Assembly: GCA_903901425.1 (NCBI GenBank)
Contig: CAIURC010000042.1
Span: 1 to 64,000 of the forward strand
Direction of reading: 5' to 3'
Length of the DNA stretch: 64,000 bases
Source: an uncultured Spartobacteria bacterium
Lineage (GTDB): Bacteria > Verrucomicrobiota > Verrucomicrobiia > Chthoniobacterales > Chthoniobacteraceae
Shown: piece by piece, positions 1-52,988 of the stretch
Position numbering within the stretch: position 1 is the stretch's first letter
How the letters are laid out: each line of letters begins with the position of its first letter
The notes under the pieces: model-generated
Told to the model about the DNA's origin: nothing
Seen by the model: the letters and a program-made list of their open reading frames with translations, nothing else
Databases searched by the model: none
Translations under genes and position numbers: made by a program

Positions 1-3000
1 CGTCGGAACTGTCTGTCACGGCAAAACGCACCGGCGCGTTCACCAGCGCCACGCCGTTGCCGTCGGTCACCGACACCGTGAATTTCTGGGCAAACACACC
101 GCCGCCCGTCATCATCTGGTCGTCGCCGCCCACCACCGCCAGCCGCACACTGCGGCCGTTGAAATATTCCCGGGGATCGCTCCCAGCTTCCTGTTCCTGC
201 CGGTTGCTGAGCCCGTCTCCATCCGGATCCGCCTCCGGGTTCTGCCCCCGGCCTCCCAGCCATTTTTCCTCCCAGCGGTCCCGGAGCCCGTTCCCGTCGG
301 TATCGGCATTCTCCATGGCAGTCAGGAGATCGGTGGGCAGTGCCGAGGCGTAACTGCGCAGATCCACCACGGCACCCCGGAAGATGCTGCCGGGCTGCCC
401 GATCCGGACCTGACCCGCCTCCGTGGCCAGGCCAGTTGGCGAAGACGCCTGAAGCTGGCCGTTCACCAGAAGCCGGGTCCCGGTTCCCGACTGGGTTCCG
501 GATTCAATTCCGACATGGTTCCATTCGCCGGGCTTCAATCCGGCGGCCGTCAGGTTTCCGGCGAGGAGCAGTTCGGCCGTTCCAGCCGCGCCGGGCCGGA
601 CACTGAGCCAGGTGGCAGCGCCGCTGGTGATCAGAGGGGTGCTGGCGGCCGGGACTTGCCCGATCCTGAGCCAGAAGCCAAGGGACCATGGCCGGGAATT
701 TTCGCAGAAAACCAGGCCGGCGTTGTCCAGCGCGGCGGACCCGGTTCCATCCAACACCAGTGCCGTGTTGCCACCGAACCCGGGCTCAAACCGGGCTCCA
801 GTTGCAAGAACTGCGGCATAGCCGGTGCCGGCGGTGTCCCGGCCACGGCTGGCGGGATCGGCAAATTCCCAGCGCCCGACCAGGGCGTTGGTCACGGCGG
901 TTGCGGAAATCGTGCCGATTTTATCGCCGGCACCTGCCCGCGCTTCAATCTGGGAGGCCACGGCCCCCTTGACACCCTGCGTGTAACGCACCGCCACGTC
1001 TCCCGCGGCATCGGTCCGGATCGAAACCAGCCCGCCGGCATCCGCGCCGTCCAACCGGCCGCCTCCCGACACCACCCGGACGGACACCGGCGCGTTCGGA
1101 AGCGTTTCCGCAGGTTTGCCCTCGTACCGGACCCGGAATTTGAGGGGTTCGACGAGGGGTTGATTGGCGGGTCCGAATTGCTGGTTGCCGCCCACCACGG
1201 TGAGCACGGGTTTTTGGCCGTTAAAATAGTCAGTGGGATCGGTCTGCGTCTGGTACTCCTGGAGGTCGCTGCGGCCGTCTCCGTCCACGTCGCCATTGGC
1301 GGAAAAGCGCTGGAGATTTCCGGCGATCTGGCCAGTGGCGCTGAGTTTGTACTCCCACCAATCGGGGATCCGGTCGGCGTCCGTGTCGCAGAGGGCGAGG
1401 ATTTCATCGGGCCGGTAACAACTCGCCAGGATCCGCGGTTCCTCGATCCAGCCCCGGAACGAGCGGGTGGCGCCTGCAACGGCCACGGCGTCGTTGCCGA
1501 TCCGCAAAAGACCGGGGTCGACCATGCCGGAAGCCACGGGCCGGGATCCGACGGCGGGCGTGCTCACGTCCAAGCCGTCCACGTACACCGTCACTGATCC
1601 GGCGTCATTCCGGGTGGCCGCGACATGGTGCGGCAGGCCGTCCCGGAACAGCGCGGAAAGATCGGTCCGCGGCACTGTTTCGAAGAGTCCGGCATCGGTT
1701 CGGACTTGGAAACAGAGTCCGGCTCCGCCGCGGAGGGCGAGCACGTAGCCTTTCCCGGTGCCGCTGAGGGCGCTGAGCACGGGGTAAAAGTCGGTGGCGG
1801 TTGACAGGGGCTGGGTTTTGTCAAAAACCACCCATGCGGCGAAGCTCAGTGGCAGGGTTCGCCAGAACTTCTGGGCGGCAGCCGCAGCGGTGGCGGAGAC
1901 CACCTGGTTGTTTCCGGTCCACCGCAGCATTTTCCCGCCGGGCACCAGCGGACTGCCGCCGGTGGCAAAACTGTTTTCCCATGTGACACCGGCAAGCGTC
2001 CCGGTCTGCCGGAACTCGGAGTCATCGGCAGCCGTGACCGCGCTTCCCTCGTCCAGTTTCCACTGGGCGATCAACTGGTGGGTGAAGAGCCGGAAACTGA
2101 CCGGGGCAGAGCCGCCGGCCCGTGACCAGACATCGGTGCGTTGGCCGGGCAGGGCGGGCTGAAGGAACCATGTCTCGGACACGCCGCGGCTGGCGGCGCT
2201 GGGCACCTCGAGCAGTTTTTCAACCGTGCCGCCGCTGCGCACCGAAAGCCGTGGCTCCAGGGTTTCCCAGCGCACCGGTGCGCCCTGGACGAGCGCCCCT
2301 CCGATCCGCACCTCCACCCCGAGCGCTTCCGGGGCAAACACGCCCTTGTCGCTGGTCTGCAAATCGCCACTGACGATTTTCAATTCCGGCACCTGACCAT
2401 TGAAATACTCGAGCGGGTTGGAGCCTTGGAAATATTCCTCCCGGTCGGTGTATCCGTCGTTGTCGGAGTTGCCCTCGGGCTCGGTGGGTGTCAGCAACCG
2501 GCCCAAGTATTTTTCCTCCCAACGGTCGTCCATCCCGTTGGCATTGAGGTCCCGCACCCCGGGATACAGAACGGCTCCGGTGATCCCGCCGCCGTTGGTG
2601 TAGAGCGAGCAGTTTGGGTAGAGCGCCCCGGCGTTTGCTGCCACAGGTTGCGCGGTTTGGATACGGACCCCGTTTTTTGAAAACTCGATCTGGTTACCCA
2701 CCCGGCGGATCCGGAACTGGTCATTGGCCGTGTAGGTGAGCGCAGCGGGGACCGTCACCAGTTTCACATTTGCGCCGTAGAGTTCCAAGACGCCGCCGGC
2801 CTTGAAATAGAACCCGTGTTCCATCTCAAACGCTTTCTTGAGGATACTGGCTGTGGTCAGCCCCACAAAAACGTTTGCAGTGGTGCGCGGCACACGGAAC
2901 TCGAGCGAGCCGTCCGTGCCCGGCGCGAGCCCTTGGTCCCCGACCGCTCCGGCATCCCATGCGGCGGTGTTGCTGTTCTTAGTCAGAACACTGCCCGTGC

Positions 3001-4642
3001 CCGGCACCGGATGGGCCGGCACTGCCCTCAAAACGTCGCGCCACACCACGTCCTGACTGGCGCCCCAGAGTTCGCACTCGGTCACGGCGCCACCTGGCTC
3101 CGTGGCTTCGACGCCCACGAGCACCTCGCCCAGCGGCGCGGTCAGCGATCGTTCATGGAACACACGTCCGTTCCTGAGGTATTGTACCCTTTCCCCCTGC
3201 GCCCCGACGGCACGCCGGATCCCGTAGGTGTCCCCCGCCACCGCCGGATGCCCCGGGCCGGCCACTCCGCTTTCCACCACCTCCACCCGGCTACCCACCA
3301 TCCGCAGTCCCAGTGCCAGAACCGGAGCGGGAACCGGATCCGGGGCGCGCCGCAGCCCGAGGGCGATCCCGGGTTTCTCAAACACAAACCGCACAAAGCC
3401 GTCCCCGGGGATGGTCTTGACCGACGTGGCCCGGGCCCCGGCAGCGGTGGCTTCCACCCGGCTCCGGCCCGAAACCGTGGCTGCAAGGATGTTGGCAGCC
3501 GAGTTCCACGCCATTTTTTCCACCCCCAGCCAGCCCCGGACCCGGACATCGCGGACCCTTGAAGACGCTCCGAACAGGAAACACCCCACCTGCAGCGACT
3601 CCGCCCCGGTCCAGCTCTTGGAGGCCACGTCCACGGCCCGTTCAGCCAGCGGGTAGACCTGCACCCCGTTTTTGAAGTACCGGATCTCGCATCCAACCCG
3701 GTCGATTCGGAACACGTCTGCCAGAAGAAAATCGCCCCGCATTTTTTCCACGCCCCGCTCCAGGATCCGGTACTTTCGGGTGCCGCCCCCGGTGCCGGGA
3801 AACGCGGCTTCGATGCAGTACTCCATGGAGGCGGCTTGGGTATGTCCGGTGGTTTCGCCGCTCAGACCGAGGGCGCACTGGAGGGTTTCCTGGCCGAACC
3901 GGAACTGGACACTGCAATCTCCGAGCAACCGGCGTGCGCCCATGGCGCCCACCCAGCCGGCCACATTCGACTTGAGCAGACCTGAAAGCCCGGAGGCGGC
4001 GGTGGAATACTCGGCGGTGACCCCGGCGGGTGTTTCCCAGAGGACGGGTTCGCCGCCTTCCTCGGCCCAGAGCCGGACCCCGGAAACGCCCGCGCCAAAG
4101 GCTTTGAGACTGGTATCGACAAAGAGGCGGCCCAGTGCAGGCACATCGGAGGTGAGCAGAGCGGTGGCGCCCTTGTAATACGTCACCTGAGCGCCACGCC
4201 GCTCAATCCGGAAAACATCTCCGGCGGAATAGGCGCCGTAATTGGTCCCGCGTTTTTGGTTCAGTTCGTAGATTTCAACCACCCCGGCAGCGGTTCCACA
4301 AATGGCGTAGTCCAGACTGGTGATATTGGCGTCCCGATTGAGCCCGGCCAAGCCAACCCTCGCGTCCATGTTTTTCTGGTCAAACCGGAACTCCACTGCG
4401 CCGTCGCCGCTGATTTCCTGAAGGCTACGCGCCCCGGCGTCCCATGCGGCACCCGCGAGGGTTTTTCTGACTGCTGTTCCTGCAGCGGTGCCAGATGCAG
4501 GCGGCGCTGCGGCGGTGGTAGACACATTGACCGGTTCGATCCACGTGACATCCCTCCAGAGTTGCGTCTGGGCGTGGGCAGGGATCCCGAGGAGGAACCC
4601 GAGAAGGAGGAGAAATCGGAGAGAAAAGAGAAGTGCGGTCAT
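1..4642 (-). CDS. Giant secreted LamG / Big-1 / Ca-binding-linker protein (C-terminus beyond left edge)
   Basis: Reading the minus strand from the ATG at 4642 gives one uninterrupted frame to the left edge: 1547 codons with no stop. Residues 1-24 are a signal peptide (MTALLFSL, leucine run, ending AHA). The first ~700 residues contain three or four beta-rich modules with recurrent 'FRIxRxGxxVxYxKNG' and 'W...G...VEFR' patterns. Two LamG/concanavalin-like modules follow (starts 'LIAQWKLDEGSAVTAADD' and 'LVGRWEFADPASRG'). They are separated by acidic linkers of thrombospondin-3/EF type ('DTDGNGLRDRW', 'DPDGDGLSNRQEQEAGSDP', then 'EYFNG') and by Big-1-like Ig modules ('LTVVGGNQQF...', 'NGVALVNAPVRF'). 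Family knowledge: such proteins are exported adhesins or carbohydrate-binding surface proteins, and some continue into RHS or autotransporter regions. The C-terminus is not visible, so anchoring is unknown. No good Shine-Dalgarno precedes the start. Confidence 0.85.
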   Translation of the reverse strand, partial: MTALLFSLRFLLLLGFLLGIPAHAQTQLWRDVTWIEPVNVSTTAAAPPASGTAAGTAVRKTLAGAAWDAGARSLQEISGDGAVEFRFDQKNMDARVGLAGLNRDANITSLDYAICGTAAGVVEIYELNQKRGTNYGAYSAGDVFRIERRGAQVTYYKGATALLTSDVPALGRLFVDTSLKAFGAGVSGVRLWAEEGGEPVLWETPAGVTAEYSTAASGLSGLLKSNVAGWVGAMGARRLLGDCSVQFRFGQETLQCALGLSGETTGHTQAASMEYCIEAAFPGTGGGTRKYRILERGVEKMRGDFLLADVFRIDRVGCEIRYFKNGVQVYPLAERAVDVASKSWTGAESLQVGCFLFGASSRVRDVRVRGWLGVEKMAWNSAANILAATVSGRSRVEATAAGARATSVKTIPGDGFVRFVFEKPGIALGLRRAPDPVPAPVLALGLRMVGSRVEVVESGVAGPGHPAVAGDTYGIRRAVGAQGERVQYLRNGRVFHERSLTAPLGEVLVGVEATEPGGAVTECELWGASQDVVWRDVLRAVPAHPVPGTGSVLTKNSNTAAWDAGAVGDQGLAPGTDGSLEFRVPRTTANVFVGLTTASILKKAFEMEHGFYFKAGGVLELYGANVKLVTVPAALTYTANDQFRIRRVGNQIEFSKNGVRIQTAQPVAANAGALYPNCSLYTNGGGITGAVLYPGVRDLNANGMDDRWEEKYLGRLLTPTEPEGNSDNDGYTDREEYFQGSNPLEYFNGQVPELKIVSGDLQTSDKGVFAPEALGVEVRIGGALVQGAPVRWETLEPRLSVRSGGTVEKLLEVPSAASRGVSETWFLQPALPGQRTDVWSRAGGSAPVSFRLFTHQLIAQWKLDEGSAVTAADDSEFRQTGTLAGVTWENSFATGGSPLVPGGKMLRWTGNNQVVSATAAAAAQKFWRTLPLSFAAWVVFDKTQPLSTATDFYPVLSALSGTGKGYVLALRGGAGLCFQVRTDAGLFETVPRTDLSALFRDGLPHHVAATRNDAGSVTVYVDGLDVSTPAVGSRPVASGMVDPGLLRIGNDAVAVAGATRSFRGWIEEPRILASCYRPDEILALCDTDADRIPDWWEYKLSATGQIAGNLQRFSANGDVDGDGRSDLQEYQTQTDPTDYFNGQKPVLTVVGGNQQFGPANQPLVEPLKFRVRYEGKPAETLPNAPVSVRVVSGGGRLDGADAGGLVSIRTDAAGDVAVRYTQGVKGAVASQIEARAGAGDKIGTISATAVTNALVGRWEFADPASRGRDTAGTGYAAVLATGARFEPGFGGNTALVLDGTGSAALDNAGLVFCENSRPWSLGFWLRIGQVPAASTPLITSGAATWLSVRPGAAGTAELLLAGNLTAAGLKPGEWNHVGIESGTQSGTGTRLLVNGQLQASSPTGLATEAGQVRIGQPGSIFRGAVVDLRSYASALPTDLLTAMENADTDGNGLRDRWEEKWLGGRGQNPEADPDGDGLSNRQEQEAGSDPREYFNGRSVRLAVVGGDDQMMTGGGVFAQKFTVSVTDGNGVALVNAPVRFAVTDSSD

Positions 4643-4669
4643 GGGAGCGCGGAGGAAAGGCGGGCGTGG

Positions 4670-4697
4670 GATACAAGAACAGTGTTCACAGCGTCAA
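4670..4697 (-). promoter_or_regulatory. Possible sigma-70-type promoter for the giant secreted protein
   Basis: On the minus strand TTGACG (4697-4692) is followed 16 bases later by TGTATC (4675-4670), about 28 bases upstream of the ATG. An 11-base palindrome, GAACACTGTTC read on minus (4687-4677), lies between the two boxes and could be an operator. Both boxes are imperfect, so this is a guess supported mainly by position and by the AT-rich context. Confidence 0.3.
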
Positions 4698-5144
4698 CTC
4701 CGTTTATTCACTATTTTCATAATAACTGTTTCACACTCTGGAGTTCGGACGGAAACCAAACATGTTTTATTACTCCTCAAGCAGTCTGAAGAAGGTCGCG
4801 GCCAGCGACCTGGGTGAAGCCCCCCCCCGCCCGCCAAGCGTCCTGATCCGGATTCCGGGAATGCGGGCTGAAATGCCTCTTCACACCTGCCTACTTCCAC
4901 TCCCGCCAAATCCTGCCGGTTTTTTCACATGCCGCCGGTTCCGTTGCATGGAGGTGCGCCGGGGAGCATGGGGCTGCAGTCCAAAAAACTTCACTCCGCG
5001 AGAACCTCTCAGTGCTGGCAGATCTCCCGGGTGGTCTTTGAGCCGTGATTTTTACAAGACTGTGCCGGGTGCGCTTCAGGTCTGACGCCAGAGGCACGGT
5101 TACGGTGTACCGCTCCAGGGATGCGCAAAACTAGCGCGCCGCCC

Positions 5145-5224: not shown

Positions 5225-5977
5225 TTAGTGAGCAGCCAGAAGCTCGCGCACCTTGGTCTCGATGGAATCCGCCCAGATCTGGTATCCCTTGGCGTTGGGA
5301 TGCAGGAGGTCGGGCATGATCTCTTTGGAGAGGGTGCCGTCGGGTTCGAGGAATTTCTTTCCGATGTCGAGGTAATGGACGCGCTGGCCATCGGCAAACT
5401 TCTGGATGAGCGTGTTGGTGGCCTCGTTCTGGAGACGCATTTTGTCGGAGGAATCAGCGCCGCGGGGGAAGATTCCAAGGAGCAGCACTTTGGACTTCGG
5501 GCACTTGGCGTGGAGTTTTTCGAGGATGGCCTTGATGCCGGCGGCGGTCTGCTCGGCGGAACAGGAATAGACGGCACCGTCGAGTTCCTTCTGCGGCCGC
5601 CCCTGATGGCCGGTGTTGTTGGTGCCGATCATGAGGACAATCAGCTTGGGCTGAAGCCCATCGAAGTTGCCGTGTTCCAAACGCCAGAGCACATGCTCGG
5701 TACGGTCGCCGCCGATCCCGAAGTTTGCGGCCTTGAGCGGCGCCCAGTGTTTTTCCCAGATCTCGCGTCCCCTGCCCGCGGACTCCCAGCCGTGGGTGAT
5801 GGAGTCCCCCAGGAAGACAAGCTCGGCCTCGCCCTTTTTGGAGATTTCGTTGAAGCTTTCGTGCCGTTTTTCGGTACCGGGATGCAGGACGGGTTGAGTG
5901 GCGTAGTTGGGGCCGGATTCGGCGGCAAAGAGCGGCAGAGCGAGTGTGAGGAGCGGGAGAATAAAACGCAGTTTCAT
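5225..5977 (-). CDS. Secreted SGNH/GDSL-family esterase (PAF-acetylhydrolase-like)
   Basis: 250 residues. Residues 1-19 form a signal peptide ending in AA. Block I is LGDSITHGW with nucleophile Ser59. Next come the block II-type GIGGDRTEHVLWRL and block III-type MIGTNN, and block V DLLHPNAKGY with Asp223 and His226 completing the triad. This pattern and length match the platelet-activating-factor acetylhydrolase gamma/beta-like branch of SGNH hydrolases. In environmental bacteria these usually deacetylate sugars or short esters in the periplasm or outside the cell. It stands alone: 144 bp separate it from plsC upstream. The natural substrate cannot be told from sequence. Confidence 0.88.
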   Translation of the reverse strand: MKLRFILPLLTLALPLFAAESGPNYATQPVLHPGTEKRHESFNEISKKGEAELVFLGDSITHGWESAGRGREIWEKHWAPLKAANFGIGGDRTEHVLWRLEHGNFDGLQPKLIVLMIGTNNTGHQGRPQKELDGAVYSCSAEQTAAGIKAILEKLHAKCPKSKVLLLGIFPRGADSSDKMRLQNEATNTLIQKFADGQRVHYLDIGKKFLEPDGTLSKEIMPDLLHPNAKGYQIWADSIETKVRELLAAH

Positions 5978-6121: not shown

Positions 6122-6745
6122 CTAGTCCGAGTCCGGGGTTAAACCGGCGATGACCCGCATAACGCGGTCACTCAGATGCTGGTAGAGATCACGGCCCTCC
6201 CGGCCCTGAAGGTCTTCGGGGCCGAAGTGGATTGGGTGGCCCACGACGAGTTCGATGGGGCTGAAAAGCCGGGGGCGGCCGCCACGGGGAAACGCTTTGA
6301 ACGCACCGAAAACGCGCATGGGCACAACGGGGGCAAGGGTTTTGGCGATGACGAGACCGAGGCCTGGCTGAGCTTCCTGCAACTGTCCGTCGAGGGTGCG
6401 AGAGCCTTCGGGAAAAATGACTGAGGCATTTCCTGAGCGGACCACCTTGATCAGGGTTTTGAGGGCAGCCATGTCGGCGCGTTCCTGGTCGACGGGGATG
6501 ACGTTCAGGTGGGGAAAAATGGGGCCAAGGATGGGCCATTCGAGGAGGGTTTTGCGGGCGAGATAAAAGATCTCGCGGTCGCAGGAGATGCCGGCCAGAG
6601 GGGGGTCGAGATAGCTCTCGTGGTTCATGGCGAGGATGAGTCCCCCCTCGGCCGGGATGCGCTCGCGGTGTCGGACCTTGAAGCCGAACAGCGTCCGGGC
6701 AAGGAACTTGGCGAGTTCGTAGTGTGTGCGGTAGATGGCCCCCAT
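6122..6745 (-). CDS. plsC: 1-acyl-sn-glycerol-3-phosphate acyltransferase
   Basis: 207 residues, PlsC/LPLAT superfamily. It carries the catalytic HX4D motif (NHESYLD, His42 and Asp47) and the substrate-binding FPEGSRT motif near residue 115. The family transfers an acyl chain to lysophosphatidate at the inner membrane, giving phosphatidate for phospholipid synthesis. It lies 27 bp downstream of cmk and closes the purF-to-plsC run. The cmk-plsC pairing is common in bacteria, and here it fits the usual arrangement aroA-cmk-plsC. The protein is short, and only the N-terminal part looks membrane-associated. Confidence 0.9.
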   Translation of the reverse strand: MGAIYRTHYELAKFLARTLFGFKVRHRERIPAEGGLILAMNHESYLDPPLAGISCDREIFYLARKTLLEWPILGPIFPHLNVIPVDQERADMAALKTLIKVVRSGNASVIFPEGSRTLDGQLQEAQPGLGLVIAKTLAPVVPMRVFGAFKAFPRGGRPRLFSPIELVVGHPIHFGPEDLQGREGRDLYQHLSDRVMRVIAGLTPDSD

Positions 6746-13667: not shown

Positions 13668-15434
13668 TCAGAGCAGGTCCGGATACAGCCTGCGGGCGAG
13701 TTCCTCGCACCGGGCCTGAATCTTGGCAGGACTCTCCTCGCGGATGACCGACTCGACCAGTTCCAGACAAGACTTCATGTCCAGGGACTGGACGGCCCGT
13801 TTGACCCGGGGCACTACGGCCGCGCCGGCGCTGAGCTCATCCACGCCAAGCCCCAAAAGCAGCGGAGCCAGTACCACGTCCCCTGCCATTTCACCGCAGA
13901 CCCCCACCCAAATCCCCTCCGCGTGACCGGCGTCGACCACCGTACGGATCAGCCTCAGGATGGCCGGATGGGTTGGCTCATACAAGTGGCTGATCTTTTC
14001 ATTCAACCGGTCGACGGCAATCGTATACTGGATGAGGTCGTTGGTTCCGATGCTGAAAAAATCGACCTCCCGGGCCAGCAGATCGGCGCAGACAGCGGCG
14101 CTGGGGATTTCGATCATCGCACCGACCTCCATTTCGGCGTTGAACGGCTGCCCCTCGGCCACCAACTCCCGGCGGCACTCCTCCAGCACGGCATTGGCCC
14201 GGCGCAACTCCTCCACCCCCGAGATCATCGGATACATCATCCGGACATTCCCGCAGGCCGAGGCCCTGAGGATGGCCCGGATTTGGGTTTTGAAGACGTC
14301 CGGACGCTCAAGACAAAACCGGATGGCGCGGCAGCCCAGGAAGGGGTTTTCCTCCTCAGGCAGGTTCAGGGCCGTCATCAGCTTGTCCCCGCCAAGATCC
14401 AAGGTTCGGATGATCACGCTGTGCGGAGCCACGGCCTGTGCCACGTCCCGGTACGCTTGAAACTGGTCCTCCTCAGTGGGAAGCCCGGTCCGGTTCAGGT
14501 AAAAAAACTCGGTCCGGAACAAGCCGACCCCTTCCGCGCCGCACTCGTTGACCTGCTCCACCTCGTCGGGGAGTTCGATGTTTGCAGACAGAATGACGTG
14601 GCGTCCATCGGCCGTGGTCGACTGGGTTTCGCGCAGCTTGTGCAGCTGTTCCTCGACCTCCGTCTTCTTGATCTCCAACTCGCCATACTCCCAGAGCGTC
14701 TGCTCGTTCGGGTTGAGGATCACGACACCGTTGTATCCGTCCAGAAGGATGTCGTCCCCGTTGTCCACCTGCTCACTAAAACTGTGCAACCCCACCACCG
14801 CAGGAATGTTCAGTGAGCGCGCCATGATCGCCGTGTGCGAGGTTTTGCTTCCGACATCCGTGGCAAATCCGAGAACCGAACTGCGGTTGAGTTGGGCGGT
14901 GTCCGAGGGAGTCAGGTTGTGGGCCACCAGCAAATGCTCGGTTTTCCATGCCCCAAGGTCCCGGGCCTCTTTTCCCGTCAGGTTCCGGATCACGCGCCGC
15001 GCCACGTCATGGATGTCGGTGGCGCGCTCCCGGAGATAGGGGTCGTCAATCTGCTCCAAGGTTGCCGCGTACCGGTTGGCCACCCGGGAGAAAATGTGCT
15101 CCACGTTGAGCCGATCCCTCTGAAGGGTCCGCAAGACCTCGTCCAGCAGCGTCCGATCCTCCACCACCAGGAGATGAGCGTCAAAAATGCTGGCATCCTT
15201 GGCTCCGATCGAGCCCGCAATCCGCTCCTGCAGGCTTAGGATCTGTCCCCGGGTCGCCAGAAGGGCGTCCTCCAAGCGCGCAATTTCCTCCGGAATATCC
15301 GCCTCGGACACCTCGCGGACGGGCGGAAGTTCATCCTCAGTCCGGTGCACCACCACCCCCCGCGCGATTCCCGGGGAAACGCCGATTCCGTGGAAACGCT
15401 TCTCCGCCCCGGGCCTTGGCTCCCCGCCGGTCAC
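13668..15434 (-). CDS. ptsI: PTS enzyme I (phosphoenolpyruvate-protein phosphotransferase)
   Basis: 588 residues. It starts with GTG preceded by GGAGG seven bases upstream. N-terminal HGIGVSPGIA, the active-site histidine His200 in GSKTSHTAIMAR, and the C-terminal PEP-binding TIM barrel (LFRTEFFYL, FSIGTNDLIQYT, CGEMAGD) are all present. It takes phosphate from PEP and gives it to HPr (next gene, 45 bp upstream in the same direction). No sugar-specific EII gene is in the window. With hprK beside it, a regulatory rather than transport PTS is plausible. Confidence 0.96.
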   Translation of the reverse strand: MTGGEPRPGAEKRFHGIGVSPGIARGVVVHRTEDELPPVREVSEADIPEEIARLEDALLATRGQILSLQERIAGSIGAKDASIFDAHLLVVEDRTLLDEVLRTLQRDRLNVEHIFSRVANRYAATLEQIDDPYLRERATDIHDVARRVIRNLTGKEARDLGAWKTEHLLVAHNLTPSDTAQLNRSSVLGFATDVGSKTSHTAIMARSLNIPAVVGLHSFSEQVDNGDDILLDGYNGVVILNPNEQTLWEYGELEIKKTEVEEQLHKLRETQSTTADGRHVILSANIELPDEVEQVNECGAEGVGLFRTEFFYLNRTGLPTEEDQFQAYRDVAQAVAPHSVIIRTLDLGGDKLMTALNLPEEENPFLGCRAIRFCLERPDVFKTQIRAILRASACGNVRMMYPMISGVEELRRANAVLEECRRELVAEGQPFNAEMEVGAMIEIPSAAVCADLLAREVDFFSIGTNDLIQYTIAVDRLNEKISHLYEPTHPAILRLIRTVVDAGHAEGIWVGVCGEMAGDVVLAPLLLGLGVDELSAGAAVVPRVKRAVQSLDMKSCLELVESVIREESPAKIQARCEELARRLYPDLL

Positions 15435-15479
15435 GCGCCTTCCTCCGGCCTGAAAGGTTGCACACCCCCGGAAGCGGAC

Positions 15480-15788
15480 TCAGTCCTCATCGAATTTCCT
15501 CAGAACGATGGCCTCAATTTCCTCCATGGCGCGCCCGGCATCGGAGCCTTCGCAGGAAACCTCCAGTTTGGAACCGGGTCCCGCGGCGAGCATCATCAAA
15601 CCCATGATGCTCTTTCCGTTGACGCGTTCGCCGTCTTTGGCGACCCAGATCTCGCATTTGAACCGGCTACACGCCTTGACCAACATGGCAGAGGGGCGTG
15701 CATGGAGGCCGAGCCGGTTCAAGACGGTCAGAACCTTGACCACCTTGCCGTCTCCTGCGTCCTCTGTTTTGCGCGATAATAAGCCCAT
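15480..15788 (-). CDS. ptsH: Phosphocarrier protein HPr
   Basis: 102 residues: the ~85-residue HPr fold with a 14-residue N-terminal extension (MGLLSRKTEDAGDG). Active-site His29 lies in NRLGLHARPSAM, and the regulatory serine Ser60 in NGKSIMGLMMLAAG, the site phosphorylated by HPr kinase. Its ATG shares one base with the hprK stop (TAATG), so kinase and substrate are coupled. It transfers phosphate from enzyme I to downstream PTS or regulatory targets, none of which is visible here. Confidence 0.95.
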   Translation of the reverse strand: MGLLSRKTEDAGDGKVVKVLTVLNRLGLHARPSAMLVKACSRFKCEIWVAKDGERVNGKSIMGLMMLAAGPGSKLEVSCEGSDAGRAMEEIEAIVLRKFDED

Positions 15789-16747
15789 TACGGAACCCTC
15801 TTCTGCATTGCCTGCAGGAGTCTCTGGTTAAAAGCAAGCGCACTGTTGTGCCCCATGCTCTTGAGCTTCTGATCCAGCGCCGCCACTTCCACCAACCGGG
15901 CGAGATCTCGACCCGTCCGGACGGGGATGGTCACATGCGGGATAAGGATCCCAAGAATTTCAAAATACTCCTGATCAATCCCAATCCTATCGACTTCCTC
16001 CAATTCCTGCCAGTCCTTTAAGGTCACAATCAGGTCCAACCGCTTCTCGGTGCGCACACTGCCCACGCCGAAGATGGACATCACGTTGATCACCCCGATC
16101 CCCCGGACCTCCATGTGGTACCGGGTCAACTCCGGGGAGGTCCCCACCAACTCCCGGCCTTCCAATGCCCGGAACCGGGTGATGTCGTCGCTCACCAGAC
16201 TGTGCCCCCGCTCCACCAAACCCAGCACCGCCTCGCTCTTTCCAATCCCGCTTGACCCCCGAATCAGCGTCCCAATCCCCAAAATGTCCACCATCGATCC
16301 GTACTCGCTCTTGGTCGGGGCAAAATCCACCTCCAACGCCAAGGTCGCCGCGTTGATGTACTTCATGGTCACCATCGGCGTCCTTAACACCGGGATCTCC
16401 GCCCGGGCCGCCTCCTCCAAAAGCACGGGCACCGGCTTGGACCCGCGCGAAACCACCAAGCCAGGGATGGGCTGCTCGCAAAGGGCGCGGCACCGAGCGC
16501 GGGCCAATTCCGGAGGCAGGCTTTTGAGATAGGAAGTTTCCGCAGCCCCGATGACCTGGATGCGTTTTTCCGCGAAATAATTATAGAACCCCGAGAGGGC
16601 GAGCCCGGGCCGGTTAATCGTGGGCTCACGGATCCGGCGATCCATCCCGACCTCCGGCCCCTCGAGCTTCATCTGGAGCAGTTCCGCGTGCCGGGAAAAA
16701 AACTCGCCGAAGGTGAGGGTCGGTCGTTGCGGCTCGGAATGGCTCAT
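15788..16747 (-). CDS. hprK: HPr kinase/phosphorylase
   Basis: 319 residues. The P-loop is GSSGIGKSE (about residues 164-172), followed by GHSLVSDD and the HprK signature GIGVINVMSIFGVGSVR. The N-terminal domain (about 1-130) has the HprK_N look (IQVIGAAE, VVSRGSKPVP). It phosphorylates or dephosphorylates the HPr serine in response to metabolite state. The stretch before the P-loop reads YGSMVDILGIG, where most homologues I remember have HGxLVDxxGxG; the His-to-Tyr change is noted as odd. Good Shine-Dalgarno (GGGGAAAGGG) before ATG 16747. Confidence 0.93.
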   Translation of the reverse strand: MSHSEPQRPTLTFGEFFSRHAELLQMKLEGPEVGMDRRIREPTINRPGLALSGFYNYFAEKRIQVIGAAETSYLKSLPPELARARCRALCEQPIPGLVVSRGSKPVPVLLEEAARAEIPVLRTPMVTMKYINAATLALEVDFAPTKSEYGSMVDILGIGTLIRGSSGIGKSEAVLGLVERGHSLVSDDITRFRALEGRELVGTSPELTRYHMEVRGIGVINVMSIFGVGSVRTEKRLDLIVTLKDWQELEEVDRIGIDQEYFEILGILIPHVTIPVRTGRDLARLVEVAALDQKLKSMGHNSALAFNQRLLQAMQKRVP

Positions 16748-16880
16748 CGGCCCTTTCCCCTACAGGAAAAGGAGGCCGCTTTCCCACACCAAAAATGGAT
16801 TGGGTCAAGATTCCCACGCGAACCAGAAACCGGTTCCCGGCTGGAAACTGGAACCGGCCTGCACGCCCGCGAAGGGCGCC

Positions 16881-17465
16881 TCAGTCGAACGTGGGCTCCA
16901 TGAGACCGTACCCGCCGTCTTTTCTGCGGTGGAGCACGTTGATTTTCTCGCTCCGGGCATTGAGGAAAACAAGGAACTGGCGGTTGGACATCTCCAACTG
17001 CAAGACCGCCTCATCCACGAACATGGGTTTGACCGGGTACCGTTCGGTCTGGATGACCTGAGGTTCGTAGTGTTCGCCGGCGTCCTCGAGTTCGAGGCCG
17101 CTGGTGTCCAAGACCTGCTCTTCCCACTGCCGGACTTCGCCTTTGCGGGGCCGATGGGAGCGCATGATCTTGGTCTTATACTTGCGCATCTGCTGGGCGA
17201 CCTTGGCCACCACCCCGTCGATGGAGGCATACATGTCGTCGGTTTCAAGACTGGCCTCGATGGTGATGTGGTTGTTGCAGTGCAGCACCACCTCCGCCAT
17301 GTGCCGGTGCTTTTCCACATTCAGGATCACCTGAGCCTCAATGATCCGCGGGTAATCCAAGTGCAGATGGTCCAGCTTCGACACCGCGTAGTTCTTGATG
17401 GCCTCGGTGATGCTCACATGGCGGCCTGTCACACGAATCGGCACGTTGACGTTTGCAGTTTGCAT
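16881..17465 (-). CDS. hpf: Long-form ribosome hibernation promoting factor
   Basis: 194 residues from ATG 17465, which is preceded by GAGGAAAAAC. Residues 1-100 are the S30AE domain (VPIRVTGRHVSITEAIKNY, LDYPRIIEAQVIL). A charged linker follows, then a C-terminal dimerisation domain (KPMFVDEAVLQLEMS...VLHRRKDGGYGLMEP) as in long HPF proteins that form 100S ribosome dimers. It binds the 30S subunit in stationary phase. It sits between lptB and hprK, the position hpf also has in the proteobacterial rpoN region. Confidence 0.93.
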   Translation of the reverse strand: MQTANVNVPIRVTGRHVSITEAIKNYAVSKLDHLHLDYPRIIEAQVILNVEKHRHMAEVVLHCNNHITIEASLETDDMYASIDGVVAKVAQQMRKYKTKIMRSHRPRKGEVRQWEEQVLDTSGLELEDAGEHYEPQVIQTERYPVKPMFVDEAVLQLEMSNRQFLVFLNARSEKINVLHRRKDGGYGLMEPTFD

Positions 17466-17545
17466 GGTTTTTCCTCGCTGGTTTTCTGGGTTGATCTGGA
17501 TTGTTCTGGGCTGTTCTCGGCGCCCCGGCTCTACCGGGGGCAGTC

Positions 17546-18325
17546 TCACATCTGGAAACGTTCCCCCAAATATACCCGGCGCGCCACCGGATCATTCAAT
17601 AGAAAATCCTTGGTCCCCTGCGTTTCCACCCGCCCCTCATAGATCATGTAGGCGCGATCCACGATGGAAAGCGTCTCCCGCACGTTATGGTCGGTAATCA
17701 GGATCCCCAACCCTTGGTCACGCAACCGGACAATAATCTGCTGCACGTCCGCCACCGCAATCGGATCCACGCCGCTGAAAGGCTCGTCCAACATCAGCAG
17801 ACTCGGACGTGTCACCAAAGATCGGGCAATGGTCAGGCGGCGCTTCTCCCCCCCCGAGAGCGTCAGAGCCACCTGCTTGGCCACATGGGTGATTCCAAAC
17901 TGTTCCAAAAGCTCCTCGCAACGCGCCCGCCGTTCCTTCCTTCCCAACGGCTGCGTCTCCAGAATCGCCAAAATATTCTCCTCCACCGTCAATTTCCGGA
18001 AAATGGATTCCTCCTGCGGCAGATATCCCATGCCCATCCGGGCCCGCTGATACATGGGCTTTCCAGTCACCTCTTCCCCGTTGAAGACCACGCGACCGCT
18101 GTTGGGACGCACCAGCCCGACAATCATGTAAAAACTGGTGGTCTTTCCTGCCCCGTTCGGGCCTAGCAACCCAACGATCTCCCCCTTCCGAAGCTGGATG
18201 TCCACCCCGTTCACCACGGCGCGCCCCCCATACACCTTCACCAGTTTCTCCGTGTACAACACCACCCCTTCCCGGCCCGAACCGGGAGCGTTCTCCGAAC
18301 CCGCTGACTCCGACACCGCGTTCAA
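17546..18325 (-). CDS. lptB: LPS export ABC transporter ATP-binding protein
   Basis: About 259 residues. It has Walker A GPNGAGKTT, the Q-loop region GYLPQEESIFRKL, ABC signature LSGGEKRR, Walker B LLMLDEPFSGVDP and switch His in ITDHNVRETL, the order and spacing of LptB. It powers extraction of LPS from the inner membrane with LptFG (not in the window). The start is uncertain. I chose TTG 18325, which overlaps the lptA stop and has GGAGG six bases upstream. GTG 18316, or a GTG near 18265 immediately before the conserved LYTEKLVKVYGG, are alternatives. The ~20-residue N-terminal extension is not conserved-looking. Confidence 0.92.
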   Translation of the reverse strand: MNAVSESAGSENAPGSGREGVVLYTEKLVKVYGGRAVVNGVDIQLRKGEIVGLLGPNGAGKTTSFYMIVGLVRPNSGRVVFNGEEVTGKPMYQRARMGMGYLPQEESIFRKLTVEENILAILETQPLGRKERRARCEELLEQFGITHVAKQVALTLSGGEKRRLTIARSLVTRPSLLMLDEPFSGVDPIAVADVQQIIVRLRDQGLGILITDHNVRETLSIVDRAYMIYEGRVETQGTKDFLLNDPVARRVYLGERFQM

Positions 18326-50403: not shown

Positions 50404-51387
50404 GTGAAAACACACGATCCAACCCCCAAGGACTGGAACCCCACCCCTCATGGACCTCATGGACCTCATGGACCTCATGGACCTCATGGACCTCATGGAC
50501 CTCATGGACCTCATGGACCTCATGGACCTCATGAAGCCCCAGCCCCCTCTGAAGTCCATCAAGTCCATCAAGTCCATCAAGTCGATCCCCCCCAACACCT
50601 CGGCCCCGGCCTTGGCCCTGAAGCCCACCGGGACCACCGGGACCACCGGGACCACCGGGACCACTGGCACACCGGATGGCCGGCATTCGAAAACCGCTCC
50701 CAAGCCGGCCGGCAACTGGCCCGGGCTCTGGGCAGGCAACCCGCCGGAACCATCACCCTCGGACTGACCCGGGGCGGAATGCCCGTGGCCGCCGAGGCGG
50801 CACGGCTCCTCGGCACGCCCCTGGACCTCTGCGCCGTCCGGAAAATCGGCTCCCCAAACAACCCCGAGCTGGCCCTCGGCGCCGTGGCCTCCGGAGGAAT
50901 CCGCATTTTCAACACCGATCTGGCAGCCGCACTCGGCGTGAGTCCAACCGGTCTGCAAGACGCCGCACAGGCACAGGAAACTGAACTGGAACGGGTGGAA
51001 ACCGCCTGCCGGGCGGGCTGGCCCAGCCTGGATCTGGTTGGCAAACCCGCTTTGCTCGTGGACGACGGGGTGGCCACCGGAGCCACGCTGCGGGCTGCCG
51101 CCGCCTCTGTCCGGGCCAGGGGCGCCAGCCGCGTCACCATTGCCGCACCTGCCGCACCGGCAGAAGTCCTGCCGGCACTGCGGACCGCCGCGGATGCCGT
51201 GCTGGTCCTGATCACCCCGGAGCCTTTCCTGGGCGTCGGCGCCTGTTACCGGGAGTTCCCCCAGGTCCCCAGCGGCGAGGTGGCACGGCTCCTGGAAGAG
51301 TCCAGAACCGCAGCGCCCGCCTGGACACGGGGCCGATCCCCGGAAAACGCCCGGCCCGCCACCGTTCATTCTCCTGAGGCGCCATGA
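50404..51387 (+). CDS. Phosphoribosyltransferase-fold protein with repeat-built N-terminal tail
   Basis: Up to 327 residues from GTG 50404. The conserved body starts at about residue 97 (FENRSQAGRQLARAL, typically the first residues of this family). It then contains LGLTRGGMPVAAEAARLL, RKIGSPNNPELALGAVASGG, the PRPP loop LVDDGVATGATLRAA and the C-terminal GVGACYREFPQVPSGEV. In frame with it, the ~95 preceding codons contain (HGP)9, (VHQ)3 and (DHR)4 units produced by three 9-bp arrays. No ATG exists in frame before 50777, which lies inside the fold. No Shine-Dalgarno is seen at GTG 50404, so the true start is unresolved. It overlaps the GroEL-like gene as ATGA. Confidence 0.72.
   Translation: MKTHDPTPKDWNPTPHGPHGPHGPHGPHGPHGPHGPHGPHGPHEAPAPSEVHQVHQVHQVDPPQHLGPGLGPEAHRDHRDHRDHRDHWHTGWPAFENRSQAGRQLARALGRQPAGTITLGLTRGGMPVAAEAARLLGTPLDLCAVRKIGSPNNPELALGAVASGGIRIFNTDLAAALGVSPTGLQDAAQAQETELERVETACRAGWPSLDLVGKPALLVDDGVATGATLRAAAASVRARGASRVTIAAPAAPAEVLPALRTAADAVLVLITPEPFLGVGACYREFPQVPSGEVARLLEESRTAAPAWTRGRSPENARPATVHSPEAP
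50447..50527 (+). repeat. 9-bp tandem array A (ctcatggac x9)
   Basis: Nine perfect copies of CTCATGGAC, with a partial tenth. All six reading frames remain open through it: HGP in the phosphoribosyltransferase frame, MDL in the next, RSM/HEV/GPG on the minus strand. Confidence 0.97.
50552..50587 (+). repeat. 9-bp tandem array B (aagtccatc x4)
   Basis: Three perfect copies of AAGTCCATC and a fourth with one change (AAGTCGATC). Its reverse complement GATGGACTT shares the core ATGGAC with array A, so A and B are inverted relatives that could pair in RNA or single-stranded DNA. Confidence 0.95.
50624..50668 (+). repeat. 9-bp tandem array C (accaccggg x5)
   Basis: Five copies of ACCACCGGG; the first has one and the last has two changes. 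The unit is unrelated in sequence to arrays A and B but has the same 9-bp period. It ends 22 bases before the conserved phosphoribosyltransferase domain begins. Confidence 0.95.
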
Positions 51388-52988
51388 AATCCGTCCTCTT
51401 CCACGAAAAAGCCCGGGAAGCCGTTCTGCGCGGTGCAACCGCACTGTCCGACGTCATCCGGGTCACCCTGGGTCCAAGGGCCCGCTGCGTTCTGATCGGC
51501 AGAAAATGGGGGGCGCCATTCGCCTGCAACGATGGGGTGGCCATTGCCAAGGAATTTTCGCTGCCAGACCCGGTGGAAAACCTCGGCGCACAGTTCCTCC
51601 GCCAGGCGGCTGAACGCACCGCAGAGAGGGTCGGAGACGGCACGAGCACCGCCACCCTTCTTGCGCACACGCTGTTTGCGGAGGGCATCCGGAACATGGC
51701 CGCGGGGGCCAGTCCGGTGGGGATCCGCCGGGGCTTGGAAAGGGGCCTGGCCGCGGCTCTGGCGAGCCTCTCCGCATTGAGCCGGAAACTGGAAAGCCGC
51801 GTTGAAAAGGCGCAGGTGGCAGCACTCTCGGCCCACAACGATCCGGGGATGGGAAACCTGGTGGCTGAGGCCCTCGAACGGGTTGGAGCGGAGGGCGCTG
51901 TCACCGTCGAAGAGTCCCGCACCACGGAAACCAGCCTGGAGGTGGTCGAGGGGCTGCGGTTCCCGCGCGGCTACATCTCGCCCTATTTTGTCACCGACCC
52001 GGGCCGGATGCAGGCCGTGCTGGAACAACCAGCCGTGCTGCTGGCGGACCGCAGGGTTTCCCGGATGAACGATCTGCTTCCGGTGCTTGAGACCCTGGCC
52101 CGGGAGAACCGCCCCCTGTTGCTGATCGCCGAGGAGGTGGAGGGCGATGCCCTCGCCACCCTTGTGGTCAACAAACTGCGCGGCACACTGAGCATTGCTG
52201 CCGCACGCGCACCCGAGTTCGGAGACCGCCGCCGGGCGTTTCTGGAGGACATGGCCCTCCTGACCGGGGCGCGCTTGGTCTGTGAGGAGGCCGGAATGAC
52301 CCTTGAAAAAACTGGCCCCGAACATTTGGGAACGGTCCGCCGTGCGGTTCTGGACCGGGAATCCACCACGCTGGTGGGGGGGGGCGGGGCCCGCGAACAG
52401 ATCGAGGCCCGGTGCGCCCAACTGCGCCAGATGTCCCAGGAAACCGGTTCGGAATACGACCGTGAAAAACTTCAGGACCGGCTCGCCCGGCTCCAAGGCG
52501 GGGTGGCCGTGATCCGGGTGGGTGCCCCGTCGGAAGCCGAAATGCTTAGCCGGAAAGAGGCGTTTGAGGATGCCGTACACGCCACCAAGGCGGCCCTGAG
52601 CGAGGGGGTGGTGCCCGGGGGCGGACTGGCCCTGTTGCGGACACTGCCCGCGGTGCGCGAGGAGGCCGAGCGGTGCGAGGGCGACGCACGCACAGGAGTC
52701 AAAATCTTGGAAACCGCGCTCGAGGCGCCCGCCCGCCAGATTGCCGCCAACTCGGGGGCGGATCCGGGCGTTGTGGTTTCCCGGATGCTGGAGGGCCCCC
52801 TGGGGTTCGATGCGACGCGCGGCACGTTTACCGACCTCGCCGCAGCCGGCATCCTGGATCCCACCCGGGTGGTCCGGGTGGCGCTCGAAAACGCGGTTTC
52901 GGTGGCGGGCACGCTCCTGTTCACCGAAGCCACCCTCACGGAAATTCCGGAACGCCCGAAGGCGTCCGACACCCCGGATCTGGAATGA
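51384..52988 (+). CDS. GroEL-type chaperonin paralogue (no groES nearby)
   Basis: 534 residues, full-length HSP60 architecture. Nucleotide-site residues are kept: VTLGPRARCVLIG, the Asp of CNDGVAIAKEF, VGDGTSTATLLAHTLF, EGVVPGGGLALL and the catalytic Asp of AFEDAVHATKAAL. The apical domain has GYISPYFVTDPGRM, the substrate/co-chaperonin-binding stretch. Departures include KWGAPFACNDG for the usual TKDG region, and a C-terminus (PKASDTPDLE) without the Gly-Gly-Met tail. Start overlaps the phosphoribosyltransferase stop and its stop overlaps the first pseudopilin ATG, both as ATGA. It is probably a specialised second chaperonin rather than the housekeeping GroEL. Confidence 0.92.
   Translation: MKSVLFHEKAREAVLRGATALSDVIRVTLGPRARCVLIGRKWGAPFACNDGVAIAKEFSLPDPVENLGAQFLRQAAERTAERVGDGTSTATLLAHTLFAEGIRNMAAGASPVGIRRGLERGLAAALASLSALSRKLESRVEKAQVAALSAHNDPGMGNLVAEALERVGAEGAVTVEESRTTETSLEVVEGLRFPRGYISPYFVTDPGRMQAVLEQPAVLLADRRVSRMNDLLPVLETLARENRPLLLIAEEVEGDALATLVVNKLRGTLSIAAARAPEFGDRRRAFLEDMALLTGARLVCEEAGMTLEKTGPEHLGTVRRAVLDRESTTLVGGGGAREQIEARCAQLRQMSQETGSEYDREKLQDRLARLQGGVAVIRVGAPSEAEMLSRKEAFEDAVHATKAALSEGVVPGGGLALLRTLPAVREEAERCEGDARTGVKILETALEAPARQIAANSGADPGVVVSRMLEGPLGFDATRGTFTDLAAAGILDPTRVVRVALENAVSVAGTLLFTEATLTEIPERPKASDTPDLE

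What the first reader, a model, noticed from the sequence alone, without database searches (positions are those of the whole stretch)
1..4642. Giant modular surface protein open to the left edge
A single frame of more than 1500 codons encodes repeated LamG, Big-1-like and calcium-binding linker modules after a signal peptide. It is easy to overlook because it has no stop inside the window. Module order (beta modules, linker with EYFNG, Big-1, LamG, linker, Big-1, LamG, linker, Big-1) shows a repeating super-unit of about 400-450 residues, so the full protein may be very long and have arisen by internal duplication.
Basis: partly seen in the sequence, partly recalled or inferred. Interest (0 to 1): 0.5.

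Follow-up and report, generated by a model that had tools for sequence, protein, structure and literature searches.

The report
Four-module surface protein linked to RHS
This is the front part of a large modular bacterial protein, probably secreted, and three of its four relatives in the same genome sit right beside RHS proteins, a class that often carries toxins, so it may be an adhesion or target-binding partner in competition between bacteria; the general type is familiar.

Summary
Observation confirmed. One minus-strand frame (ATG 4642 to base 2, 1,547 codons) has no stop. Base 1 is also the contig end, so the 3' end is not assembled. Pfam finds two Laminin_G_3 and two TSP3_bac stretches; Big_1 is not matched here and is subthreshold in a relative. 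Internal duplication is real: four ~170-residue head modules and two full plus one partial [TSP3-YFNG-Big-like-LamG] units, YFNG spacing 393 and 354.

New: (1) the head modules, unmatched in Pfam, fold like SPRY domains (pLDDT 92.7; Z 16.3). (2) Four are found in each of seven genus proteins, five of them in this genome. (3) A same-genus relative aligns throughout and reaches at least 1,996 aa. (4) Of 13 genes with such modules, 10 can be judged: 5 have an RHS gene next, 2 are fused to RHS, 3 have neither. The window copy cannot be judged. (5) Its last 186 bp recur at 185/186 on another contig, fused to a transposase relic.

Best reading: adhesin or target-recognition partner of an RHS polymorphic-toxin system. 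The mechanism is inferred.

The parts
4568..4642 (-). Start codon and probable Sec signal peptide (residues 1-25)
   Evidence: Read by eye from the translation; no signal-peptide predictor was run
4034..4552 (-). Head module 1 (residues 31-203), SPRY-like fold
   Evidence: Profile match; AlphaFold2 mean pLDDT 92.7; VIA-align Z 16.3 to RanBP10 SPRY 5jia
3503..4048 (-). Head module 2 (residues 199-380)
   Evidence: Profile match; similarity to module 1 z 16.8
3038..3517 (-). Head module 3 (residues 376-535)
   Evidence: Profile match; similarity to module 1 z 11.9
2537..3052 (-). Head module 4 (residues 531-702)
   Evidence: Profile match; similarity to module 1 z 25.0
2396..2539 (-). TSP3-type linker 1 ending in LEYFNG (residues 702-749)
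   Evidence: TSP3_bac best stretch 726-744; YFNG motif
2081..2395 (-). Ig/Big-like module 1 (residues 750-854)
   Evidence: By alignment with unit 2; no curated Big_1 match in this protein
1388..2080 (-). LamG module 1 (residues 855-1085)
   Evidence: Laminin_G_3 best stretch 927-1081
1217..1387 (-). TSP3-type linker 2 ending in TDYFNG (residues 1086-1142)
   Evidence: Motif; aligned
890..1216 (-). Ig/Big-like module 2 (residues 1143-1251)
   Evidence: All-beta region in the model of unit 2 (mean pLDDT 75.5); no curated Big_1 match
323..889 (-). LamG module 2 (residues 1252-1440)
   Evidence: Laminin_G_3 passes in two stretches (coordinates of the second are not printed, its place is taken from the alignment); lectin-type jelly roll in the model
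155..322 (-). TSP3-type linker 3 ending in REYFNG (residues 1441-1496)
   Evidence: Motif
2..154 (-). Start of Ig/Big-like module 3 (residues 1497-1547), cut by the contig end
   Evidence: aligned to the relative L069
1..186 (.). Stretch shared at 185/186 identity with the left end of contig C200; bases 97-186 also match an orphan fragment on C103 at 76/90
4517..4972 (.). 5' end of the gene and upstream region, present as a 78% identical truncated copy just upstream of the C34 paralogue

Best explanation
The frame is the N-terminal part (about three quarters, if the gene is as long as its G002 relative) of a modular, probably surface-exposed protein in a verrucomicrobium of the same genus as a MAG titled Chthoniobacter flavus. 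It has a head of four SPRY-fold modules and a stalk of repeated units (TSP3-type linker, Ig/Big-like, LamG). Its family (A) mostly sits beside, or is fused to, RHS/YD-repeat proteins (B), one of which ends in a recognised toxin domain. Most likely working mode: A is exported by Sec and stays at the cell surface; TSP3 linkers stiffen the stalk with calcium; SPRY-like and LamG modules bind a protein or glycan on a neighbouring cell or matrix, and this adhesion serves delivery of the toxin carried by B. Shown here: the modules, the predicted fold, the internal duplication, the four-module head, the physical link to RHS genes and two fusions. Inferred: secretion, calcium, ligand binding, cooperation with B. 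Whether this particular copy has an RHS gene after it is unknown.
For: Domains. Four head modules in each of 7 family proteins, none in 7 other large frames scanned with them. SPRY-like fold; a solved 'structural protein' chain carries a related module by sequence (26gp, E 9.7e-7), and a phage structural protein (Cellulophaga phage phi13:1) by fold. RHS link: 13 genes with such modules examined; 3 cut by contig ends (window, G002, G397-C22); of the other 10, 5 have an RHS gene next on the same strand (C34, C103, C151, G003, G397-C18), 2 are one frame with RHS repeats (G275, 4,913 aa; G394-C3, 8,885 aa), 3 have neither (C28, G394-C1, G397-C6). In the own genome 9 frames carry RHS_repeat; the 3 above 800 aa, a limit chosen after seeing the list, each directly follow a four-module gene. 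Toxin and immunity marks: Ntox44 at the end of the C103 partner, 45.2 bits against 24; an SMI1_KNR4 gene after the G275 fusion. The RHS gene of G004, whose A-like neighbour has no head module, has Peptidase_C39; C34 and C103 partners align with it and keep a Cys, a His and an Asp there (that these are the catalytic ones is recalled).
Against: The window copy has no visible RHS neighbour. Its closest relative (G002) also runs off its contig, and the contig that overlaps that end by 64 nt has an oxidoreductase-like gene (named by eye) next, not RHS, though the coding signal fades across that join. 3 of 10 judged loci have no RHS. The paralogues are related, so the 10 loci are not independent. 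Only one of the partner genes scanned shows a known toxin domain. No anchor was seen, as the C terminus is missing. A fold match shows no ligand.
Confidence: 0.5

Rival explanations
1. A glycan-binding or matrix adhesin with no functional tie to RHS: LamG and the SPRY-like/CBM66-like modules capture polysaccharide or hold cells together, and the RHS neighbours reflect genomic hot spots for large surface genes.
For: The head module also matches CBM66 (Z 14.1), and the LamG half matches AbnA domain 4 (Z 16.2). C28, G394-C1 and G397-C6 lack RHS. TSP3 stretches of paralogues weakly match MtsD and CglD (39.6-57.2 bits against cut-offs of 800 and 400).
Against: RHS is next or fused in 7 of 10 judged loci, and in two both are one polypeptide.
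Confidence: 0.3
2. The window gene is itself an A-RHS fusion, as in G275 and G394-C3: the missing part encodes RHS repeats and a toxin tip.
For: Fusions exist in the same class; the contig breaks in a repeat, and RHS pieces of this genome lie on many short contigs.
Against: The five complete four-module genes of the genus (C34, C28, C103, C151, G003) stop after TSP3 repeats without RHS in the same frame.
Confidence: 0.1
3. The left end is an assembly or strain-mixing artefact, so the last ~186 bp do not belong to this gene.
For: Bases 1-141 are identical in C42 and C200 and both contigs start at the same base, as at a branch of an assembly graph. The genome has 1.94% estimated contamination.
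Against: The relative G002 has the same module at the same place and the alignment runs through. The C200 junction is shared with C103 (73% over 229 columns), so that junction was not made by the assembler.
Confidence: 0.08

Closest known systems
RHS/YD-repeat polymorphic toxin systems (Zhang et al. 2012, PMC3482391; abstract start and passages seen)
   Same: Partner genes have RHS repeats; the C103 partner has an RHS core and Ntox44; a SUKH-type gene follows one fusion; loose RHS ends occur on short contigs of the genome
   Different: The window protein shows no RHS repeat, core or toxin domain in the part present; it belongs to the neighbours of such genes. 'LamG' and 'concanavalin' do not occur in the held part of that paper
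SPRY/B30.2 domain
   Same: Predicted fold of the head module: Z 16.3, rmsd 2.4 over 149 residues to RanBP10 SPRY
   Different: No Pfam SPRY match at E <= 1; 14% identity; tandem and bacterial
Cellulophaga phage phi13:1 structural protein (BFVD S0A0Y9) and PDB 26gp 'Structural protein'
   Same: 26gp: sequence similarity to head module 1 (E 9.7e-7); phi13:1: same fold (E 2.5e-10)
   Different: Phage protein (phi13:1); that 26gp is this same protein is a guess from its name and similar length. A protein search of the phage collection with the head found no match
MtsD cohesion and CglD gliding proteins
   Same: TSP3 stretches of two paralogues (39.6-57.2 bits)
   Different: Far below the equivalog cut-offs (800 and 400 bits); shared repeat type only

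Membership tests
Laminin_G_3 (PF13385) | Profile match above the gathering score | tested here: met
   74.4 bits against 27.6, two stretches
TSP3_bac (PF18884) | Profile match above the gathering score | tested here: met
   45.4 bits against 25, two stretches
Big_1 (PF02369) | Profile match above the gathering score | tested here: inconclusive
   No match in the window protein at E <= 1; 25.5 bits against 34.9 in the relative; all-beta region in the model, not searched alone
SPRY domain | SPRY/B30.2 beta-sandwich fold | tested here: met
   Ranks 1-30 are SPRY or PRYSPRY entries, Ash2L entries, one CTLH ligase module and three CRLF3 entries; the first other kind is CBM66 at rank 31. Predicted model, not a solved structure
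SPRY domain | Sequence match to the SPRY profile | tested here: not met
   No SPRY match for the window protein at E <= 1
RHS polymorphic toxin system | RHS/YD repeats or RHS core in the protein | tested here: not met
   None in the 1,547 residues present; the C terminus is missing
RHS polymorphic toxin system | RHS gene next to the family's genes | tested here: met
   5 of 10 judged loci next to RHS and 2 of 10 fused; not judgeable for the window copy
RHS polymorphic toxin system | Immunity gene next to the toxin | tested here: inconclusive
   SMI1_KNR4 after the G275 fusion; the small frames after the G003, G397-C18 and G394-C3 genes have no Pfam match; not examined at C34 and C103
RHS polymorphic toxin system | Contact-dependent toxin delivery | not testable with these tools
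   Needs competition assays

The most novel reading that the evidence does not exclude
The TSP3-YFNG linker is a swap point. Orphan 3' cassettes (C200, C103), each fused to the relic 5' end of an IS200-like (RAYT-type) transposase gene, exchange sequence with full-length four-SPRY genes, so that the stalk and tip of this adhesin are shuffled by transposase-linked cassettes much as RHS tips are exchanged, and adhesin and toxin diversify together. Support: 185/186 identity of window and C200 up to a sharp break at base 186 inside the linker, against 76/90 to C103; an old junction shared by C200 and C103 (88/112 on the transposase side); IS200-like transposase genes after the A-B locus of G003 and the G275 fusion. 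Against: the transposase-side element also recurs at places without a cassette, no such transposase gene was found in the fetched C34, C103 and C151 loci, the similar-looking frame after the G394-C3 fusion has no Pfam match, and a second strain in the bin could explain the near identity.
Probability: 0.15. Interest if true: 0.62.

Novelty: new variant of a known kind. Interest (0 to 1): 0.4.

Why it matters
How exported RHS proteins find a target cell in Verrucomicrobia is, as far as I know, open. A neighbour gene with four SPRY-fold modules, sometimes fused to RHS in one polypeptide, is a testable candidate for the recognition part. The SPRY fold is best known (recalled) as an intracellular eukaryotic peptide-binding domain; a tandem and probably extracellular bacterial form, with a related module in a phage structural protein, invites a ligand search. 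If the cassette reading held, it would tie adhesin diversity and toxin diversity to one recombination process.

Tried and rejected
Extending left: window base 1 is the contig end. The places sharing the first 186 bases are C200 (same direction, so a branch and not a continuation) and a short C103 fragment; the true 3' end was not recovered. RHS contigs of the bin (C15, C27, C62, C6, C147, C70) were read; none appears among the DNA matches to the window end.

Using G002 for the full length: contig C52 overlaps C47 by 64 nt and would give 2,118 aa, but third-position G+C drops from 0.84 to 0.69 across the join, so 'at least 1,996 aa' is the firm value.

Named relatives: the first scan of genome contigs found none; the second found one locus, the G002 record CAMAUX010000047.1. 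Phage records by protein: no match. Four-module head: 3 of 213 order genomes, own included, at E 1e-15 with at most 5 candidates scored per genome; modules in 4 of 387 phylum genomes, own included, with at most 3 or 9 scored. Absence elsewhere is therefore soft.

Set aside: G006, G012 and G024 frames are RCC1 proteins. G004, G007 and G018 frames match the stalk of the window protein and have RHS genes near but no head module; they are not in the 10 judged loci. For G397-C6 and C28 the absence of RHS rests on the frame map and a YD-motif count, not on Pfam. The fold list for the super-unit is filled by lectin-type domains, among them toxin binding domains and sialidases; I take this only as the common jelly roll of LamG. 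The Big-like part was not searched alone. NCBIfam matches of the window protein are all under the cut-offs.

Papers: searches gave none. 51, 53 and 93 gave listings from which I opened nothing. 52 led to PMC3482391 and PMC6425310 (passages); 94 led to PMC4960237 (passages on YD-repeat proteins in the Akkermansia outer membrane). I make no claim of absence from print beyond these nine searches of the open-access library.

Full report
WHAT IS THERE. The window is bases 1-64000 of contig C42 (92,769 bp) of a 5.1 Mb, 224-contig genome. On the minus strand a frame starts at ATG 4642 and is open to base 2 (1,547 codons). Upstream on the same strand lie a GDSL-type hydrolase (5225-5977) and an acyltransferase (6122-6745). 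Nothing is known to the left, since the contig ends there.

MODULES. Pfam gives two Laminin_G_3 stretches and two TSP3_bac stretches; NCBIfam gives nothing over its cut-offs. A profile built from the four N-terminal repeats was run on 14 proteins. It finds four copies in each of seven: the window protein, four paralogues in the same genome (C34, C28, C103, C151) and one protein each in two other genomes of the genus (G002, G003). It finds none in the other seven large frames, which had come from the search with the window protein. After the head come units of TSP3-type linker ending in a YFNG-like motif, an Ig/Big-like region and LamG. Two full units and the start of a third are present; their mutual similarity stands at z 14.5-16.3 against 200 shuffles. 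The G002 protein aligns with the window protein throughout at 44% identity and carries three units within 1,996 residues before its own contig ends. The complete paralogues are 1,296-1,551 residues stop to stop.

FOLD. Head module 1, folded with a 28-row alignment, gives pLDDT 92.7 and pTM 0.88. Ranks 1-30 of the structural matches are SPRY or PRYSPRY entries, Ash2L entries, one CTLH ligase module and three CRLF3 entries; best is RanBP10 SPRY, Z 16.3, rmsd 2.4 over 149 residues, 14% identity; CBM66 follows at rank 31, Z 14.1. By sequence one solved chain matches the head profile: 26gp_Q, a 'structural protein', E 9.7e-7. By fold the structural protein of Cellulophaga phage phi13:1 ranks second among viral models. 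Pfam's SPRY profile does not match, so this is a SPRY-like fold and not a demonstrated family member by sequence. The model of the super-unit is weaker (pLDDT 75.5); its LamG half matches lectin-type jelly rolls.

NEIGHBOURS OF THE FAMILY. I examined 13 genes with SPRY-like modules, which are those returned. Three are cut by contig ends: the window gene, G002 and G397-C22. Of the other ten, five have an RHS-repeat gene next on the same strand: C34 and C103, C151, G003 and G397-C18, which has a single module. Two are single frames with both modules and RHS repeats: G275 (4,913 aa, 8 modules) and G394-C3 (8,885 aa, 19 modules). Three have neither: C28, G394-C1 and G397-C6. In the own genome nine frames carry RHS_repeat at E <= 0.001; the three above 800 aa, a limit I set after seeing the list, each directly follow a four-module gene. 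The other six are shorter, on contigs that are mostly short, so truncation may hide more. The C103 partner has an RHS core and ends in Ntox44. The G275 fusion is followed by an SMI1_KNR4 gene. The RHS gene of G004, whose neighbour lacks the head, has a Peptidase_C39 domain, and the C34 and C103 partners align with it and keep a Cys, a His and an Asp there. Such features are those of polymorphic toxin systems as described in PMC3482391 (passages). The other partners scanned show no toxin domain in Pfam.

SIGNS OF RECOMBINATION. Bases 1-186 of the window recur at 185 of 186 identity at the left end of contig C200, where the homology stops sharply inside the codons of the TSP3-YFNG linker. In C200 the fragment is fused to sequence that matches the start of an IS200-like transposase gene on C196 (locus L142; Y1_Tnp match; the label RAYT is recalled). 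The same junction, diverged (88 of 112 on the transposase side, 75 of 90 on the cassette side), exists on C103. It is therefore old and not made by the assembler, while the near identity of C200 and the window must be recent. The 5' end and upstream region of the window gene also recur, at 78%, as a truncated copy just upstream of the C34 paralogue. Transposase genes of this kind follow the A-B locus of G003 and the G275 fusion. Against a special link: the transposase-side element also occurs at other places of the genome (C68 and shorter pieces on C39, C158, C104 and C33), and a protein search found no such transposase gene in the fetched C34, C103 and C151 loci. Gene turnover by duplication and recombination is well supported; a role of the transposase is inference. 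That C200 comes from another strain in the bin is not excluded.

MECHANISM. Inferred chain: Sec export (signal peptide by eye), surface retention (anchor unknown), a calcium-stiffened stalk (general knowledge of TSP3-type repeats, recalled), ligand binding by the SPRY-like head and LamG, and support of the RHS partner. Only the anatomy, the predicted folds and the genetic linkage are shown.

TAXONOMY AND SPREAD. The G002 record is titled Chthoniobacter flavus, isolate MaE-04nov19-34 (MAG); the tool places the own genome in the same genus. The four-module head was found in 3 of 213 genomes of the order and modules in 4 of 387 of the phylum, own genome included in each, with few candidates scored per genome.

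VERDICT. Interest 0.4.

Noticed in passing
L107, L108, L110 (contigs C15, C27, C6): Short contigs of the own genome carry RHS core ends with different tails followed by small ORFs, like arrays of exchangeable tips with possible immunity genes (immunity by position only).
   Followed up: partly
L185-L187 (G394:C3:384538-411192) and L182:3475-18213: Very long single frames (8,885 and 4,913 aa) combining 19 and 8 SPRY-like modules with RHS repeats.
   Followed up: partly
L114:2036-12601 (G003:C35): An RHS gene (1,806 aa) directly upstream, not downstream, of a 1,715 aa frame with TSP3-like motifs and no head module.
   Followed up: no
L180:9311-11707 (G394:C1): The four-module gene of G394-C1 is followed by a 799 aa frame with TSP3 and a subthreshold transglutaminase-like match; the G275 fusion has a similar subthreshold match.
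   Followed up: no
window 51378-52985: A GroEL-like frame (named by eye, no domain search).
   Followed up: no
window 13671-17591: Neighbouring frames that look like PTS enzyme I, HPr, an HPr-kinase-like protein and a hibernation factor (by eye).
   Followed up: no
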